A stretch of DNA of 7,843 bases, taken from contig QNAD01000090.1 of the NCBI GenBank assembly GCA_003641345.1, forward strand, positions 1-7,843, given 5' to 3'. The notes under the pieces were generated by a model. It ran no database searches and was not told where the DNA came from. It saw only the letters and a program-made list of their open reading frames with translations. The position numbers and the translations under genes were made by a program. The DNA is from Candidatus Zixiibacteriota bacterium (GTDB lineage Bacteria > Zixibacteria > MSB-5A5 > GN15 > FEB-12). Shown one piece after another: positions 665 through 5,348 of this stretch (its first letter is position 1; the number at the start of each line of letters is the position of its first letter).

Positions 665-1522
665 TTATTTTTTCCAGTAAAGATCAACAGAACCAAGACC
701 AACCTCGATAGAAATAATCAATCTATCATCGGCATCATCAAAATCAGGGGATTCGTATAAATCATCATCAATCTCATCGAGATCTTCGTTGTGAAAATCA
801 ATTGAGGACAACCAATTGTTTCCTTCGGTTTCGATTCTTACCGAAAGTCCTTTAGGAACAATTATTTTAGCTGAACCAAGGCCAACTTCCAAATTTACTC
901 TTGATTCACCATGATATTCCCCTCCTCGTAAATCAATATCAAACGATCCTACTCCACCAGAAAAATTTAGTTCATCAAAATTTGCGTTACCCATAGATAT
1001 CATTTCAATCGAGGATGCTCCGGCATCAATATTAATTTCTTTGAGTCTAATTGGATTCGGTTTTGAAAATTCAATAGTGCCTTCAGCGGCTCCAACATCA
1101 ATTTCCAGATATTCCAAAGCAATACCTCCAAAATCAAACTCAGCATCACAGGCACCAATATCAAAATTTATTTCCGTATTATATTTTGTGGATACAATTA
1201 TATCCCACAAGTTATCATCAGTATCAATATTATTTTTCCGACGACTTTCGCTTTCAAACGCAAGATAACCGGTTGAACGTTTTACATCATAATCAATTTC
1301 ATAATCAATTTTACGGGAATCGTATTCTATATCAATAATGGCAATATCGTCAATATCTGCTGACTTTAAATTAAATTCACCTGCTCCCAAATCAGCATCA
1401 ATAATAACTTTTTCAACTCCTTCTGCTTCTATTGTTTTGGAGATTTTCTCCCACCTTCCAGCAATAGTAACATTTGCCAAAATTAGAATTAGCACCGTAG
1501 AGAATATTATAATTTTCTTCAT
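665..1522 (-). CDS. exported toast-rack/LiaF-like beta-repeat protein
   Basis: The product has 285 residues with a signal peptide (1-21, cleavage near TIA|G) and no other membrane segment, so it is probably periplasmic or surface-exposed. The body is a beta-repeat. A motif of alternating hydrophobics plus Gly-x-Gly/Ala recurs around residues 46, 123, 144, 168, 190, 214 and 275 (for example DADLGAGEFNLK, LEVGLGSAKIIVPKG, IEVGLGSVDLYW). This resembles the Toast_rack_N and LiaF C-terminal (DUF2154) families, linked in other bacteria to cell-wall and envelope stress. It is very acidic, with a D/E-rich insertion at 245-266. The ATG at 1522 has AGGAG at 1530-1534, 7 bases upstream. It is the last gene of the sigma operon and has its own ECF-type promoter at 1563-1591. 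The molecular role is unknown; the fold family is likely, not certain. Confidence 0.75.
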   Translation of the reverse strand: MKKIIIFSTVLILILANVTIAGRWEKISKTIEAEGVEKVIIDADLGAGEFNLKSADIDDIAIIDIEYDSRKIDYEIDYDVKRSTGYLAFESESRRKNNIDTDDNLWDIIVSTKYNTEINFDIGACDAEFDFGGIALEYLEIDVGAAEGTIEFSKPNPIRLKEINIDAGASSIEMISMGNANFDELNFSGGVGSFDIDLRGGEYHGESRVNLEVGLGSAKIIVPKGLSVRIETEGNNWLSSIDFHNEDLDEIDDDLYESPDFDDADDRLIISIEVGLGSVDLYWKK

Positions 1523-1562: not shown

Positions 1563-1591
1563 ATTACGATAGGTATAATAAGAAAGTTTCA
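1563..1591 (-). promoter_or_regulatory. ECF-type promoter in front of the toast-rack gene
   Basis: On the minus strand TGAAAC (1591-1586) is followed by 17 bases and then CGTAAT (1568-1563). This fits the -35/-10 pattern known for many ECF sigma factors (for example Bacillus SigW: TGAAAC, about 16 bases, CGTA). The TGA of the -35 is also the stop codon of the preceding gene. Transcription would start near 1557, leaving a leader of about 35 bases with a good AGGAG. It matches the site in front of the sigma gene itself, apart from one extra spacer base. Confidence 0.65.
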
Positions 1592-2785
1592 TTCTTCAAA
1601 TTTATTATTAGGTTCTATTTCGTCTTTGGAACTTGTTGGTATATTTGGGATTGGCGGTGGAGCCGGAACATTTTCATCGCCGTTGATTTTAGTTTGGCTA
1701 CCCAAACTATGATATGCTCTAAATCCAAGCCTGGTTAGAAAAGCAGTCCCAATTCCTGAAAAAATTGGAAAAGTTGAAATCAATATTGAGATTACTAAGA
1801 AAAAAATACCAAAACCTTCTGAGACAGAATCACTTGACCCCATCAAAACAGCAACAATCATCCATAACATCATTAGAATAAGCACGCCAACAATTGAATT
1901 TGAGAATGCAGATTTTGAATTGGTTTTAAATCTTGATGAAATTTTTTCTCCGATAATATTACCGAAAGCAATAACGCCCACAAAAATTGCAAATAAATAT
2001 GCAAGAGGTAAAAGCGGAATTAATACAATTCCAACAATCGTTATAGCAAAAAGTAATATTAAAGCCGGCAATAAGATTAAAAACAGAAATCCCACAAAAT
2101 ATGTTCGAATTCTATAATTCTGCATACATATTTTAAAATTGTCTAATTGCCTTGGCATTAAAAAGGCTACAAGATAAGAAAGTAAAACAAAAAAGATAAT
2201 AAATGAAGATACTATAATAATCCCATCAATTGAAAACGTGTCAACCAAACCCTCAAAATCTAAGGGATTATTTGTTTCAATAACTTCACCAACAACAACC
2301 GCTCCATTTTTCAAAATAATAGTTGGAGCTTCCACACTACCTTCAACTCGTCCGGTATTTGTAATCAGAATTTTATCGGTTAAAGATTTGACGTCCCCTT
2401 TAACCCAACCGCGAATAATTACTTTTTCCAAAGCAACTATATCACAATCCACATATTCATCAAACCCAACCTGAACATTTTTTTCAAGTTTGGATATTTT
2501 TAATTCATAGACTGCTCTATTTTCAATTTCTTCTTCAGCTTCTAATCTTTCTAAATCCGAATTTTCCTCAATTGATAAATCCTGTTGTCCATGAATAAAA
2601 AGGTCTTTGCTAAAATCATAATACCATTGTTCACCGGAAGTATCAACAGCCGCCACTCCTTCATCGTTAAGACGAATTTCAATAAATGTTATATCTGAAA
2701 TTTCTCTGACAGAGTCCTGAGCAACAACACTTGAAGTGATAACAATAAAAGAAATAAATAAAATTTTTAATAACAAAGTCTTCAC
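1589..2785 (-). CDS. membrane protein with bactofilin-like periplasmic domain
   Basis: The product has 398 residues. A signal peptide (1-22, VVA|Q) precedes a periplasmic part of about 160 residues. It holds an acidic, coiled-coil-prone stretch (70-90) and a short bactofilin/polymer-forming-type beta-helix (about 103-172: short hydrophobic rungs such as VIIRGWVKGDV, RVEGSVEAPTIILKNGAVVVGEV). Five predicted helices follow (about 187-210, 230-252, 253-276, 297-316, 326-350). Basic loops at 211-229 and 277-296 place these sides, and the proline-rich tail 351-398, in the cytoplasm. Similar architectures occur as polymer-forming membrane proteins of unknown function; soluble bactofilins are cytoskeletal. 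The start is GTG at 2785, supported by AGGA 7 bases upstream. It lies 25 bases after the DUF4097 gene. A role in sensing or scaffolding the envelope is inference. Confidence 0.75.
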   Translation of the reverse strand: MKTLLLKILFISFIVITSSVVAQDSVREISDITFIEIRLNDEGVAAVDTSGEQWYYDFSKDLFIHGQQDLSIEENSDLERLEAEEEIENRAVYELKISKLEKNVQVGFDEYVDCDIVALEKVIIRGWVKGDVKSLTDKILITNTGRVEGSVEAPTIILKNGAVVVGEVIETNNPLDFEGLVDTFSIDGIIIVSSFIIFFVLLSYLVAFLMPRQLDNFKICMQNYRIRTYFVGFLFLILLPALILLFAITIVGIVLIPLLPLAYLFAIFVGVIAFGNIIGEKISSRFKTNSKSAFSNSIVGVLILMMLWMIVAVLMGSSDSVSEGFGIFFLVISILISTFPIFSGIGTAFLTRLGFRAYHSLGSQTKINGDENVPAPPPIPNIPTSSKDEIEPNNKFEE

Positions 2786-2792
2786 TTTACAA

Positions 2793-2796
2793 TCCT
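2793..2796 (-). promoter_or_regulatory. ribosome-binding site that fixes the GTG start
   Basis: AGGA on the minus strand (2796-2793) stands 7 bases before the GTG at 2785. No ATG in the right frame lies between here and the signal peptide, so GTG is the best start. The site falls in the 25-base gap after the DUF4097 stop codon. Confidence 0.7.
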
Positions 2797-2810
2797 ATGT
2801 AACGAAAAGG

Positions 2811-3719
2811 CTAATATTGGCTTACTTCAACATCTCCGGTTAAAGATGTCAGAGAAACTTTTGTTCCACCGCCACCGAATTCACCTTCCATACGATTATT
2901 ATCAATAGATTTAATCGAAACCGGCACGTCAGATTTTATTTCACCAGCTTTTGTTTCAATTTCCAAATATCCGGCAGCAAAAACAGGCACCGAAAAATAA
3001 ATTGTACCACTGGTAGTTTCAACAAAATAATTTTTATCAGTTGACATTTCAGTTTCAATATTTACGGAACTTGAACTGGTCTTGATATTTATTGAACCTG
3101 TCAGCTGTTTTATATCAATCTTTCCCATCTGTGATTTAACTTTAATATCCCCTTCGACCCATTGTAAATCAATTTCCGCATTTTCACAATTAATAGATAT
3201 GGGACCTCGATTATATTCAATCTTCAAATCTTCTAATGTCCCGCTGGTAATATCAACCGCCCCGTCATGGTCACTGATGAATATTTTCCCTGTCATCGTA
3301 TTAAAAACCAAATCACATCTGTGTGGAACAGCTATTTTAAAATTGACATCACCATAAGAGTCTTCCCCAACACCGATAAATTTTTTCCAGAACGAACTAC
3401 TGCGATTTAACATTTTCAAGAAATTTGTACTAATATTTACGTTATCACCATCCTGGTCAACTTTGATTTCAATATGGTCAGCAACTTCTTCAGCTTCGTT
3501 TCTATTTGAGGCACGTACTGTTTTGACCGCTTCAACAATTAGCTTGTTATTATTTGATGGAATTACTTCAATAATCCCTCTTGGTATTTCCAGCTCCAGT
3601 TTTATTCCCGATTTGACCGATAATATTTTTTGATATTCAAATTGAAATTCATCTGCCTTAGTAATAGTAGTCATCAAAATTATAAGACAAAATATAATAG
3701 CCGTTTTCCGAACAAACAT
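2811..3719 (-). CDS. exported DUF4097-family beta-strand repeat protein
   Basis: The product has 302 residues. A signal peptide covers 1-22 (cleavage near TKA|D), and there is no lipobox, further membrane helix or sorting motif, so it is likely periplasmic. From residue 39 it shows the DUF4097 (putative adhesin) pattern. There is an early strand pair (LELEIPRGIIEVIP), then successive short strands with TGKI, SGTL, GPIS, GDIK, GKID, GSIN, SGTI and AGEI turns between about 142 and 262. A glycine-rich FGGGGTKVSLTSLTGDVEV ends the domain. These strands build a right-handed beta structure like the toast-rack fold of the last gene in the operon. AGGGAG at 3728-3733 lies 8 bases before the ATG. It occupies the slot right after the sigma gene (25-base gap) where an anti-sigma factor usually sits, but it has neither a zinc-finger nor a cytoplasmic domain. 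Its function is unknown. Confidence 0.85.
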   Translation of the reverse strand: MFVRKTAIIFCLIILMTTITKADEFQFEYQKILSVKSGIKLELEIPRGIIEVIPSNNNKLIVEAVKTVRASNRNEAEEVADHIEIKVDQDGDNVNISTNFLKMLNRSSSFWKKFIGVGEDSYGDVNFKIAVPHRCDLVFNTMTGKIFISDHDGAVDITSGTLEDLKIEYNRGPISINCENAEIDLQWVEGDIKVKSQMGKIDIKQLTGSINIKTSSSSVNIETEMSTDKNYFVETTSGTIYFSVPVFAAGYLEIETKAGEIKSDVPVSIKSIDNNRMEGEFGGGGTKVSLTSLTGDVEVSQY

Positions 3720-3744
3720 ATTAGTTACTCCCTGATTTAACCCG

Positions 3745-4308
3745 TTAAATTCCTTTTAGCTTTTTTTTCAAAAGCTCACGGGCTCTAAAAATTCTGGCTT
3801 TAACAGTTCCAACCGGTATATCCATTAATTCGGCTATTTCTTCATATGATTTATCATCCTTATGACGATAAATTATAACCATTTTATATTTTTCCGGAAG
3901 TTCTTCAATTGCCCCGGCAATACTAAATCTTTGCTGTTTTCTAACCATGTCATTTTCCGGGTTATATGATTGATCGGCAACTTCTATTTCTACTTTTCCG
4001 TCACCTGTATCCAACTCCCTGTCAAGAGAAAGAGCCTTGATTCTTTTCTTTCTCAAAAAATCTATTGAACAATTAGCGGCAATCTTATATAGCCAGGTCG
4101 AAAATTTGTATTCTGAACGATAGCTAGCAAGAGAATTAAACGCTTTCATAAAAGTTTCCTGCACTAAATCATTGGCAGTATCCGTATTCCTGACAATTTT
4201 ACTAATAATATGAAACACCGAAACACGGTATTTTTCATTTAACTTGCGGAATGCCTTCTGGTTACCATTTAAGGCATCGGCAATTATTTTATGTTCGTCA
4301 TTTTCCAA
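3745..4308 (-). CDS. ECF (RpoE-type) RNA polymerase sigma factor
   Basis: The product has 187 residues, the usual ECF length, with only regions 2 and 4. Region 2 spans about 20-90, including DLVQETFMKAF (2.1/2.2 core binding) and FSTWLYKIAANCSIDFLRKK (-10 recognition helix). A linker (91-130) follows. Region 4 spans about 131-184, with the helix-turn-helix SYEEIAELMDIPVGTVKARIFRARELL that reads the -35. The protein directs RNA polymerase to a small stress or envelope regulon. The start is a TTG at 4308. An in-frame stop lies four codons upstream, no ATG precedes residue 54, and homologous ECF factors begin at this point. The Shine-Dalgarno is weak (AAGAAG). It heads an operon with three exported envelope proteins and has an ECF-type promoter at 4324-4351, so it probably activates itself. 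No anti-sigma gene is adjacent, which is unusual. Confidence 0.95.
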   Translation of the reverse strand: MENDEHKIIADALNGNQKAFRKLNEKYRVSVFHIISKIVRNTDTANDLVQETFMKAFNSLASYRSEYKFSTWLYKIAANCSIDFLRKKRIKALSLDRELDTGDGKVEIEVADQSYNPENDMVRKQQRFSIAGAIEELPEKYKMVIIYRHKDDKSYEEIAELMDIPVGTVKARIFRARELLKKKLKGI

Positions 4309-4323
4309 AGCAGTCTTCTTTTA

Positions 4324-4351
4324 AATACGCAATTATTATGCACCTGTTTCA
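4324..4351 (-). promoter_or_regulatory. ECF-type autoregulatory promoter of the sigma operon
   Basis: On the minus strand TGAAAC (4351-4346), 16 bases, then CGTATT (4329-4324). This agrees at all fixed positions with the classic ECF pattern TGAAAC-N16-CGTA. It lies directly in front of the sigma gene. The predicted start near 4317 leaves a leader of only about 9 bases before the TTG codon. A matching site lies in front of the last gene of the operon (1563-1591). Confidence 0.7.
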
Positions 4352-4583: not shown

Positions 4584-5348
4584 ATGACTATCTATGATTA
4601 TCCAAAATATTATGACGTTGCCTTCTCGTTTAGAGATTATGAACAAGAGGCAAAATTTTTAGATTTTTGCAATCAAAACTTATCTTCTGCCAAAACAAAT
4701 AAAATCCTTGAAATAGGCTGTGGGCATGCCCCTCATGCCGGAGAATTGAGTAAGTTGGGGTATAAATACTTTGGATTAGATATAAATCAGAAAATACTTA
4801 ATTTTGCTCGTAATCAGTGGAATCAGATTATAGCTCCAAATCACTTTTTTCAAAAAGATATGATATCTTTTGAATTTGAAGATACTTTTGATTTTATATA
4901 TATCATGCTTGGTTCTTTATGTACTAATAATGACGCCCAAATGAAATCTCATTTTGATTCAATATCAAAATGTTTAAACAGCGGTGGGCTTTATTTTATG
5001 GATTATTGCATTCAATTTGAAGACCCATTAAAATATCAGAATGAAAATGAATATATAATTGAAAAGGATGATATCAAAATACGGTCCAGATTTAATATCC
5101 GTTCACTTCAAGGAACTGAGAATCTATTCGAGGAAGCCTGGAACATAGATGTAATTGACAAAGGAATTACCCATTCATTTGAAATGCTTGAAAAAAGCAA
5201 AGCAATTTATCCCGATGATTTCCTTGAATTCATAAACAAACGAAAAGATTTCGAAATCATAGGCTGGTTTTCAGAATGGAATCTTGAAAAACCAATTCAC
5301 AAAGAATCAGAAATTATTCGACCAATAGTAATTTTAAAAAAACTATAA
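4584..5348 (+). CDS. class I SAM-dependent methyltransferase
   Basis: The product has 254 residues and no signal peptide, so it is cytoplasmic. A Rossmann methyltransferase domain runs from about 39 to 145. Motif I is ILEIGCGHAPHAGELSKLGY (41-60), which binds the methionine part of S-adenosylmethionine. GLDIN (64-68) provides the acidic residue for the ribose. Motif II-like DFIYIMLGSLC lies at 103-113, and the LNSGGLYFMDY strand at 131-141. The C-terminal half (about 145-254), with many aromatic and acidic residues, probably forms the substrate-binding part. The acceptor cannot be named from sequence. The ATG has AAGGA (4570-4574) 9 bases upstream. The gene diverges from the sigma operon across 275 bases and converges on the lipoprotein gene with a 12-base gap. 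No functional link to either neighbour is visible. Confidence 0.85.
   Translation: MTIYDYPKYYDVAFSFRDYEQEAKFLDFCNQNLSSAKTNKILEIGCGHAPHAGELSKLGYKYFGLDINQKILNFARNQWNQIIAPNHFFQKDMISFEFEDTFDFIYIMLGSLCTNNDAQMKSHFDSISKCLNSGGLYFMDYCIQFEDPLKYQNENEYIIEKDDIKIRSRFNIRSLQGTENLFEEAWNIDVIDKGITHSFEMLEKSKAIYPDDFLEFINKRKDFEIIGWFSEWNLEKPIHKESEIIRPIVILKKL

What the first reader, a model, noticed from the sequence alone, without database searches (positions are those of the whole stretch)
1563..4351. Two matching ECF promoters, both in the sigma factor's own operon
TGAAAC-N16-CGTA lies in front of the sigma gene (4326-4351) and TGAAAC-N17-CGTA in front of the toast-rack gene (1565-1591), on the correct strand. 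I looked at the other TGAAAC words in the window (minus strand, near 2275, 2951, 3019, 3049 and 5468; plus strand at 502) and none has CGTA at this spacing. The motif has ten fixed bases, so two such placements by chance are unlikely. The simplest reading is an autoregulated sigma factor with a second entry point that raises the last gene above the rest of the operon.
Basis: partly seen in the sequence, partly recalled or inferred. Interest (0 to 1): 0.75.

Follow-up and report, generated by a model that had tools for sequence, protein, structure and literature searches.

The report
Sigma factor operon with two promoters

Summary
In detail: TGAAAC-N16-CGTA and TGAAAC-N17-CGTA lie as stated (0.03 expected, 0 of 200 shuffles with two). 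No genome is held for the window, so I tested 80 related loci, mostly Zixibacteria. A relaxed form stands before the sigma gene in 59 of 79 and before the toast-rack gene in 38 of 51, but before the two middle genes in 0 of 71 and 1 of 76; exact: 41 of 79, 21 of 51, 0, 0. Spacers are hardly more alike than chance, so selection holds the boxes. The second site keeps its distance to the toast-rack start while sliding across the bactofilin end. The two sites are lost independently. Genome-wide, exact sites modestly exceed the reversed pattern (1603 to 1162 in 132 genomes) and favour gene starts; recurrent neighbours include envelope, efflux and regulator genes. The -35 box equals the SigW consensus (PMC6713349). 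No known anti-sigma gene was found in the operon. Side finding: the sigma gene starts with TTG or GTG in 57 of 62 loci. Activity is inferred, not measured.

The parts
4326..4351 (-). ECF-type promoter P1: -35 TGAAAC (4351-4346), N16, -10 CGTA (4329-4326), before the sigma gene; start of transcription expected near 4317-4319
   Evidence: a site at the same place (-39 to -55 from the aligned start) in 61 of 79 relatives with variants chosen after looking, 41 of 79 exact
3745..4308 (-). ECF sigma factor, 187 aa, sigma regions 2 and 4 only, start codon TTG; nearest solved relatives SigW and RpoE
   Evidence: Pfam Sigma70_r2 and Sigma70_r4_2; PDB 5wuq SigW and 1or7 RpoE; NCBIfam SigW best but under its cut-off
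2811..3719 (-). DUF4097 toast-rack protein, LiaG-like, with N-terminal hydrophobic segment (probably exported)
   Evidence: Pfam DUF4097; NCBIfam LiaG 46 bits, cut-off 285; hydrophobic N-terminus in 66 of 70 loci
1589..2785 (-). bactofilin-domain membrane protein, 398 aa, GTG start, hydrophobic N-terminus, about five further membrane helices, conserved PAPPPI motif near the C-terminus
   Evidence: Pfam Bactofilin; alignment of 58; AlphaFold2 mean pLDDT 84; five further membrane-like segments in 55 of 73 loci
1565..1591 (-). ECF-type promoter P2: -35 TGAAAC (1591-1586, overlapping the bactofilin stop codon), N17, -10 CGTA (1568-1565), before the toast-rack gene; start expected near 1556-1558
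   Evidence: a site in 42 of 51 relatives with variants chosen after looking, 21 of 51 exact; 36 of the 42 lie -67 to -83 from the aligned start
665..1522 (-). toast-rack protein with LiaF-like C-terminal domain, 285 aa, ATG start behind an AGGAG ribosome site, hydrophobic N-terminus (probably exported)
   Evidence: Pfam Toast_rack_N and LiaF-like_C; sequence; hydrophobic N-terminus in 49 of 51 loci

Best explanation
The operon encodes a SigW-like ECF sigma factor that switches on its own operon from P1 and the last gene, the LiaF-like toast-rack gene, again from P2. Sigma-bound polymerase reads TGAAAC-like boxes at -35 and CGTA at -10 at both places and before a small set of other genes, among them envelope, efflux and regulator genes. 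P2 makes the toast-rack protein a direct target of the sigma factor, independent of read-through, so that its level can follow active sigma even where P1 has been lost. Shown: the sites, their recurrence at fixed positions, the enrichment before genes, the conserved DNA-reading residues. Inferred: that this sigma factor, not one of its paralogues, uses the sites; that they are active; that the response is to envelope stress.
For: Two exact sites against 0.03 expected. Exact site before sigma in 41 of 79 and before toast-rack in 22 of 52, before DUF4097 0 of 72 and bactofilin 0 of 77, all counts including the window; 200 scrambled motifs average 0.00 to 0.03. Spacer identity between loci is 0.29 for sigma sites and 0.31 for toast-rack sites, near chance. 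Site position follows the toast-rack start, not the bactofilin stop. Of 46 ECF paralogues in four genomes 1 has an exact site within 350 bp upstream, against 2 of 4 orthologues; the other two orthologues are ones without a sigma-gene site. Region 4 keeps T168, K170, R172 and R175, residues with which SigW contacts TGAAAC (PMC6713349, passages read). Genome-wide enrichment. Recurrent neighbours include a BlaI-type repressor, ABC exporter, MATE, HlyD, DUF2807 and DUF2884 proteins.
Against: No transcription data. The -35/-10 pair is common to many ECF sigma factors (PMC8103513, passage read), each of five genomes carries 5 to 13 paralogues, and one of them has the site itself. The genome-wide excess is modest (12.1 against 8.8 per genome; 36 of 132 genomes show fewer matches than control). 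About half of the relatives lack the exact site at each place. With variants allowed, 8 of 34 relatives that have a sigma-gene site and the toast-rack gene show no toast-rack site, and 18 of 79 show no sigma-gene site. In several recurrent neighbours the called start is far from the site or the site lies inside a longer frame.
Confidence: 0.85

Rival explanations
1. The two sites are real ECF promoters but are used by a different ECF sigma factor of the same cell (cross-regulation), not by the operon's own.
For: ECF sigma factors share AAC and CGT boxes (PMC8103513, passage read); 5 to 13 paralogues per genome in five genomes; one paralogue in G004 carries the exact site upstream.
Against: The site is tied to this orthologue: 41 of 79 relatives exact, but 1 of 46 paralogues in four genomes. 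Base-contacting residues match those of SigW, whose -35 consensus is the same (PMC6713349).
Confidence: 0.1
2. Housekeeping sigma-70 promoters drive these genes, and the ECF-like words are by-standers in AT-rich DNA.
For: The window is AT-rich; sigma-70-like matches lie nearby (1550-1521 and 4361-4332, minus strand).
Against: The sigma-70-like matches are about as frequent as in shuffles (1 against 1.3; 3 against 2.2). The ECF boxes, not their surroundings, are conserved in relatives. Additional sigma-70 promoters are not excluded.
Confidence: 0.03
3. The second site is kept because it codes for the end of the bactofilin protein (a short peptide with E-T) or because of its stop codon, not as a promoter.
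For: In 25 of 43 loci (window included) the site begins inside the bactofilin gene, and in 5 of these the TGA is the stop codon.
Against: In the other 18 of 43 it starts at or after the stop codon, yet keeps its distance to the toast-rack start; the second box is kept as well.
Confidence: 0.02

Closest known systems
Bacillus subtilis SigW (ECF sigma factor) and its promoters
   Same: Same protein length and domain plan; best NCBIfam match, best PDB match with the alignment and third with the single protein; the published SigW -35 consensus is TGAAAC (PMC6713349, passages read). That SigW uses CGTA at -10 and governs export, detoxification and envelope genes is recalled.
   Different: 170 bits against the SigW cut-off of 209. 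No RsiW-like anti-sigma gene found next to it. Residue 171, Thr in SigW, is Ala in all 24 aligned sequences; in the sites, base -34 is A in 50 of 61 but C or T in 11, which would fit the lost contact.
Lia operon (LiaI, LiaG, LiaF with LiaRS) and toast-rack gene neighbourhoods (PMC11237479; section 27 and passages read)
   Same: A DUF4097 (LiaG-like) and a LiaF_C-like toast-rack protein in one operon with a transcription regulator; that paper notes toast-rack contexts with an operonically linked sigma factor.
   Different: Sigma factor in place of the two-component system; a bactofilin-type membrane protein in between; both toast-rack proteins appear exported, whereas the paper argues that the domain is intracellular; LiaG and LiaF models score far below their cut-offs. 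The terms bactofilin, ECF and Zixibacteria do not occur in that paper's main text.
E. coli RpoE
   Same: Envelope-stress ECF sigma factor with several promoters for its own gene including an autoregulated one (PMC8103513, passage read); window residues Arg148 and Phe174 match RpoE rather than SigW (PMC6713349).
   Different: RpoE -35 is GGAACTT (PMC6713349); RpoE has the anti-sigma factor RseA (PMC8103513), encoded next to it (position recalled).

Membership tests
ECF (group IV) sigma factors | only sigma regions 2 and 4 as promoter-binding parts | tested here: met
   Pfam Sigma70_r2 at 25-89 and Sigma70_r4_2 at 129-180 of 187 aa
ECF (group IV) sigma factors | AAC in -35 and CGT in -10 of target promoters (hallmark in PMC8103513) | tested here: met
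   59 of 79 relatives upstream of sigma, relaxed form; 41 of 79 exact; that the sites are its targets is inferred
ECF (group IV) sigma factors | positive autoregulation (common, not universal) | tested here: inconclusive
   site present in 61 of 79 relatives, absent in 18, variants allowed; activity not measured
ECF (group IV) sigma factors | cognate anti-sigma factor in the operon (common, not universal) | tested here: not met
   no anti-sigma Pfam or NCBIfam match among the window's operon proteins; genes upstream of sigma differ between loci. An unrecognised kind of anti-sigma is not excluded
SigW orthologues | NCBIfam equivalog cut-off for SigW | tested here: not met
   170 bits against 209, and 144 against 243
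SigW orthologues | -35 TGAAAC and the residues that contact it | tested here: inconclusive
   motif exact; T168, K170, R172, R175 kept but T171 replaced by Ala (PMC6713349)
Lia system | LiaRS two-component system beside LiaF | tested here: not met
   no kinase or response regulator among the window proteins scanned
Lia system | LiaF and LiaG family cut-offs | tested here: not met
   LiaG 46 of 285 bits, LiaF_C 30 of 57 bits
ECF classification group (published groups) | match to the group's own profile | not testable with these tools
   the ECF group models are not among the libraries

The most novel reading that the evidence does not exclude
A phylum-wide SigW-like sigma factor that works without a classical anti-sigma factor: its amount is held down by a conserved TTG or GTG start codon behind a very short leader, its activity is controlled by the membrane bactofilin protein and exported toast-rack proteins of its own operon, and the separately driven LiaF-like toast-rack protein closes a feedback loop that survives even where autoregulation of the sigma gene has been lost.
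Probability: 0.25. Interest if true: 0.7.

Novelty: new variant of a known kind. Interest (0 to 1): 0.47.

Why it matters
It gives a testable regulatory circuit, with a defined promoter and a candidate target set, for a phylum without a genetic model that I know of (recalled). It also joins toast-rack/Lia-type envelope parts to an ECF sigma factor rather than to a two-component system, and shows that the promoter before the LiaF-like gene persists in lineages that have lost the recognisable autoregulatory site, which suggests that making this protein is a purpose of its own and not a by-product of self-amplification.

Tried and rejected
The 10 were picked because they carry the operon, 9 of them with an exact site in it, so their enrichment (180 to 83) is higher than across the phylum (1603 to 1162); the phylum figure is the fairer one.

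A claim that the toast-rack site is steadier than the sigma-gene site: it does not hold in all countings and I dropped it. With my variant list, 41 of 50 relatives that hold both genes and upstream DNA have the toast-rack site and 34 of 50 the sigma-gene site. But with the exact motif it is 22 against 30 of 50, and with one mismatch 31 against 34 of 50 (window included). What stands is independent loss in both directions.

Region 4 covariation with the -35 variants: the recognition helix is nearly invariant in the aligned loci, so no covariation could be shown. Fold search with the bactofilin-protein model: best E 0.64, no useful match. An anti-sigma gene upstream of sigma was looked for and not found. 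An intrinsic terminator between bactofilin and toast-rack genes was looked for in the window and not found.

The relaxed motif and the variant list were chosen after seeing the loci, so the exact-motif counts are the unbiased ones; the constancy of G, AA and C in the -35 box is partly built into that choice. L011 was counted as lacking a sigma-gene site although a GGTAAC box lies at -115; L041 was left out for want of upstream DNA. Target clusters of TetR, ABC, FG-GAP and GNAT genes may be family resemblance rather than orthology. Target genes were called by simple scripts, not by a gene finder.

Literature: judged from listings (titles and starts of abstracts), the searches showed no paper on this operon; the 4 papers that hold both 'Zixibacteria' and 'sigma factor' were not opened. 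One search (SigW with the motif letters) returned nothing. The library lacks most subscription journals.
Full report
Check of the observation. The two sites are exactly as described, minus strand 4351-4326 and 1591-1565, and are the only TGAAAC-N15..18-CGTA matches in the window; 200 dinucleotide shuffles gave on average 0.03 and never two. The TGA of the downstream box is the bactofilin stop codon.

Genes. On the minus strand: sigma factor (TTG 4308 to 3745), DUF4097 protein (3719-2811), bactofilin-domain membrane protein (GTG 2785 to 1589), toast-rack protein (1522-665). The nearest solved relatives of the sigma factor are SigW and RpoE. Of the 74 relatives of the bactofilin protein, eight carry an organism in their name: five Zixibacteria (the closest, P0126, at 94% identity), one FCB group bacterium, one plain 'bacterium', one Candidatus Acidoferrum. 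No genome is held for the window.

Conservation. A scan of the species genomes with a sigma alignment returned 80 loci (413 stretches encoded relatives, the best 80 were kept): 63 are titled Zixibacteria or Zixiibacteriota, 11 'bacterium', 2 GN15, 2 Calditrichota, 2 FCB group. I anchored the four genes by tblastn. Exact site within -130 to -25: sigma 41 of 79, toast-rack 22 of 52, DUF4097 0 of 72, bactofilin 0 of 77, all counts including the window; 200 scrambled motifs averaged 0.00, 0.01, 0.02 and 0.03, maximum 2. With up to one mismatch: 52, 32, 0 and 1; 60 scrambled motifs averaged 0.52, 0.30, 0.67 and 0.38, maximum 12. With a relaxed form chosen after looking ([TCG]G[ACT]AAC-N16/17-CGT[AC], within -100, relatives only): 59 of 79, 38 of 51, 0 of 71, 1 of 76. 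Counting listed variants, 61 of 79 relatives have a sigma-gene site, all between -39 and -55, and 42 of 51 a toast-rack site, 36 of them between -67 and -83. Pairwise spacer identity among exact N16 sites is 0.29 (33 sigma sites, window included) and 0.31 (12 toast-rack sites); flanks 0.27 to 0.36. The boxes, not their surroundings, are held by selection.

The second site belongs to the toast-rack gene. Relative to the bactofilin stop it slides from 58 bases inside the gene to 41 after it; 25 of 43 begin inside the gene, 5 of these using the stop codon as the window does (window included). No terminator was found between the genes in the window, so read-through from P1 remains possible and P2 is a second entry.

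The sites are lost independently. Of 79 relatives with upstream DNA, 18 lack a sigma-gene site; on a maximum-likelihood tree this label needs 10 changes, at least 9 forced by well-supported branches. Sixteen of the 18 hold the toast-rack gene and 15 of these keep its site, variants included; conversely 8 of 34 loci with a sigma-gene site and the toast-rack gene lack a toast-rack site. With stricter matching, among 50 loci including the window: exact, both 17, sigma only 13, toast-rack only 5, neither 15; up to one mismatch, 20, 14, 11 and 5. So which site looks steadier depends on the stringency, and I make no claim there.

Who reads the sites. SigW binds T-36 G-35 A-34 A-33 A-32 C-31, with K170, T171, R172, R175 and T168 among the contacts (PMC6713349, passages read). 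The window protein aligns to SigW without offset in region 4 and keeps T168, K170, R172, R175; residue 171 is Ala in all 24 sequences. In 61 relatives the -34 base is A in 50, C in 10 and T in 1, as expected if that contact is lost; this is an inference, and the variant list was mine. Five complete genomes each hold one orthologue (E 1e-94 to 1e-107) and 5 to 13 further ECF genes, the best of which scores 6e-36. In four of them, 1 of 46 paralogues has an exact site within 350 bp upstream, against 2 of 4 orthologues; G005 was not tested.

Matches elsewhere. Ten genomes reached through the loci hold 180 exact matches against 83 for the reversed pattern; 132 phylum genomes hold 1603 against 1162, more in 86, fewer in 36, equal in 10. 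From the ten I held 130 loci with 129 distinct matches (duplicates dropped); the rest of the 180 were not listed by the tool, lay in the operon or were not fetched. Two of the 129 are toast-rack sites of the operon itself. By one fixed rule 63 of 128 are intergenic and before a gene, against 5 of 29 reversed-pattern matches (Fisher p 0.0017; first three per genome 15 of 30 against 5 of 29, p 0.013) and 7% of regularly spaced positions in the control loci. The 114 proteins called behind the sites form 19 similarity clusters, 18 of them spanning at least two genomes, one being toast-rack itself. I scanned 20 representatives: DUF2884 protein (cluster in 5 genomes), DUF2807 toast-rack (4), BlaI-type repressor (4), a membrane protein without Pfam match (4), ABC exporter (3), double-PDZ protein (3), FG-GAP (3), TetR (3), PhzF (3), and pairs with MATE, HlyD, S41 peptidase, GNAT, sigma-54 regulator, hydrolase or no Pfam match. 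In the membrane-protein and ABC clusters the called start lies about 260 to 325 bases from the -35 box, and some members of other clusters are as far or lie inside a longer frame, so these are weaker cases.

How sigma activity might be controlled. No product of the window's operon matches a known anti-sigma family. DUF4097 and toast-rack proteins have hydrophobic N-termini in 66 of 70 and 49 of 51 loci and further membrane-like segments in 0 of 70 and 3 of 51; the bactofilin protein has five further segments in 55 of 73 (window included). Besides sigma it is thus the likeliest to have cytoplasmic parts; four prolines of its PAPPPI motif are invariant and the Ala and Ile at least 90% conserved in 58 homologues. 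That it holds the sigma factor is a guess.

Start codon. In 62 loci with a sigma-gene site (window included), the first in-frame start after the -10 box is TTG in 36, GTG in 21, ATG in 4, none in 1. An in-frame ATG within eight codons of the aligned start exists in 12 of 79 sigma genes, but in 51 of 71 DUF4097, 41 of 76 bactofilin and 47 of 51 toast-rack genes of relatives. With 13 to 28 bases between the -10 box and the aligned start, the leader would be about 6 to 21 bases if transcription starts 7 bases after the box (assumed). Together with P2 this suggests low sigma and high toast-rack output.

Literature. A toast-rack survey mentions an operonically linked sigma factor but, in its main text, not bactofilin, ECF or Zixibacteria (PMC11237479: section 27 read, other passages by term). 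ECF hallmarks are from PMC8103513 (passages). No paper on this operon appeared in the listings.

Verdict. The finding is right and its main comparative predictions hold. Known in kind: autoregulated SigW-type ECF control. New, as far as I found: this operon make-up, a second sigma-type promoter kept before the LiaF-like gene, and the conserved non-ATG start of the sigma gene.

Noticed in passing
4306-4308 (-) and the sigma genes of 61 relatives: The first in-frame start of the sigma gene is TTG or GTG in 57 of 62 loci with a site, while an in-frame ATG is near the start in 47 of 51 toast-rack genes; with a very short leader this looks like conserved weak translation of the sigma factor.
   Followed up: partly
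1589-2785 (-), C-terminus: The bactofilin-type membrane protein carries a nearly invariant PAPPPI motif near its C-terminus in 58 homologues; a fold search of its model gave no useful match.
   Followed up: partly
4584-5348 (+): A methyltransferase gene lies divergently upstream of the sigma gene in the window and 14 relatives.
   Followed up: no
L184 (genome G004): A second, distant ECF sigma gene carries the same exact site upstream, a possible sigma cascade.
   Followed up: partly
L114, L130, L157: Three of four BlaI-type repressor genes have a site with a further ACGAAAC word at the same place inside the spacer; the fourth, L087, differs there.
   Followed up: no
toast-rack sites of L039, L045, L052, L055, L058: Five related loci have TGCAAC-N17-CGTC before the toast-rack gene, while the sigma-gene sites of the four that have one keep CGTA; possibly a weaker or altered promoter.
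   Followed up: no
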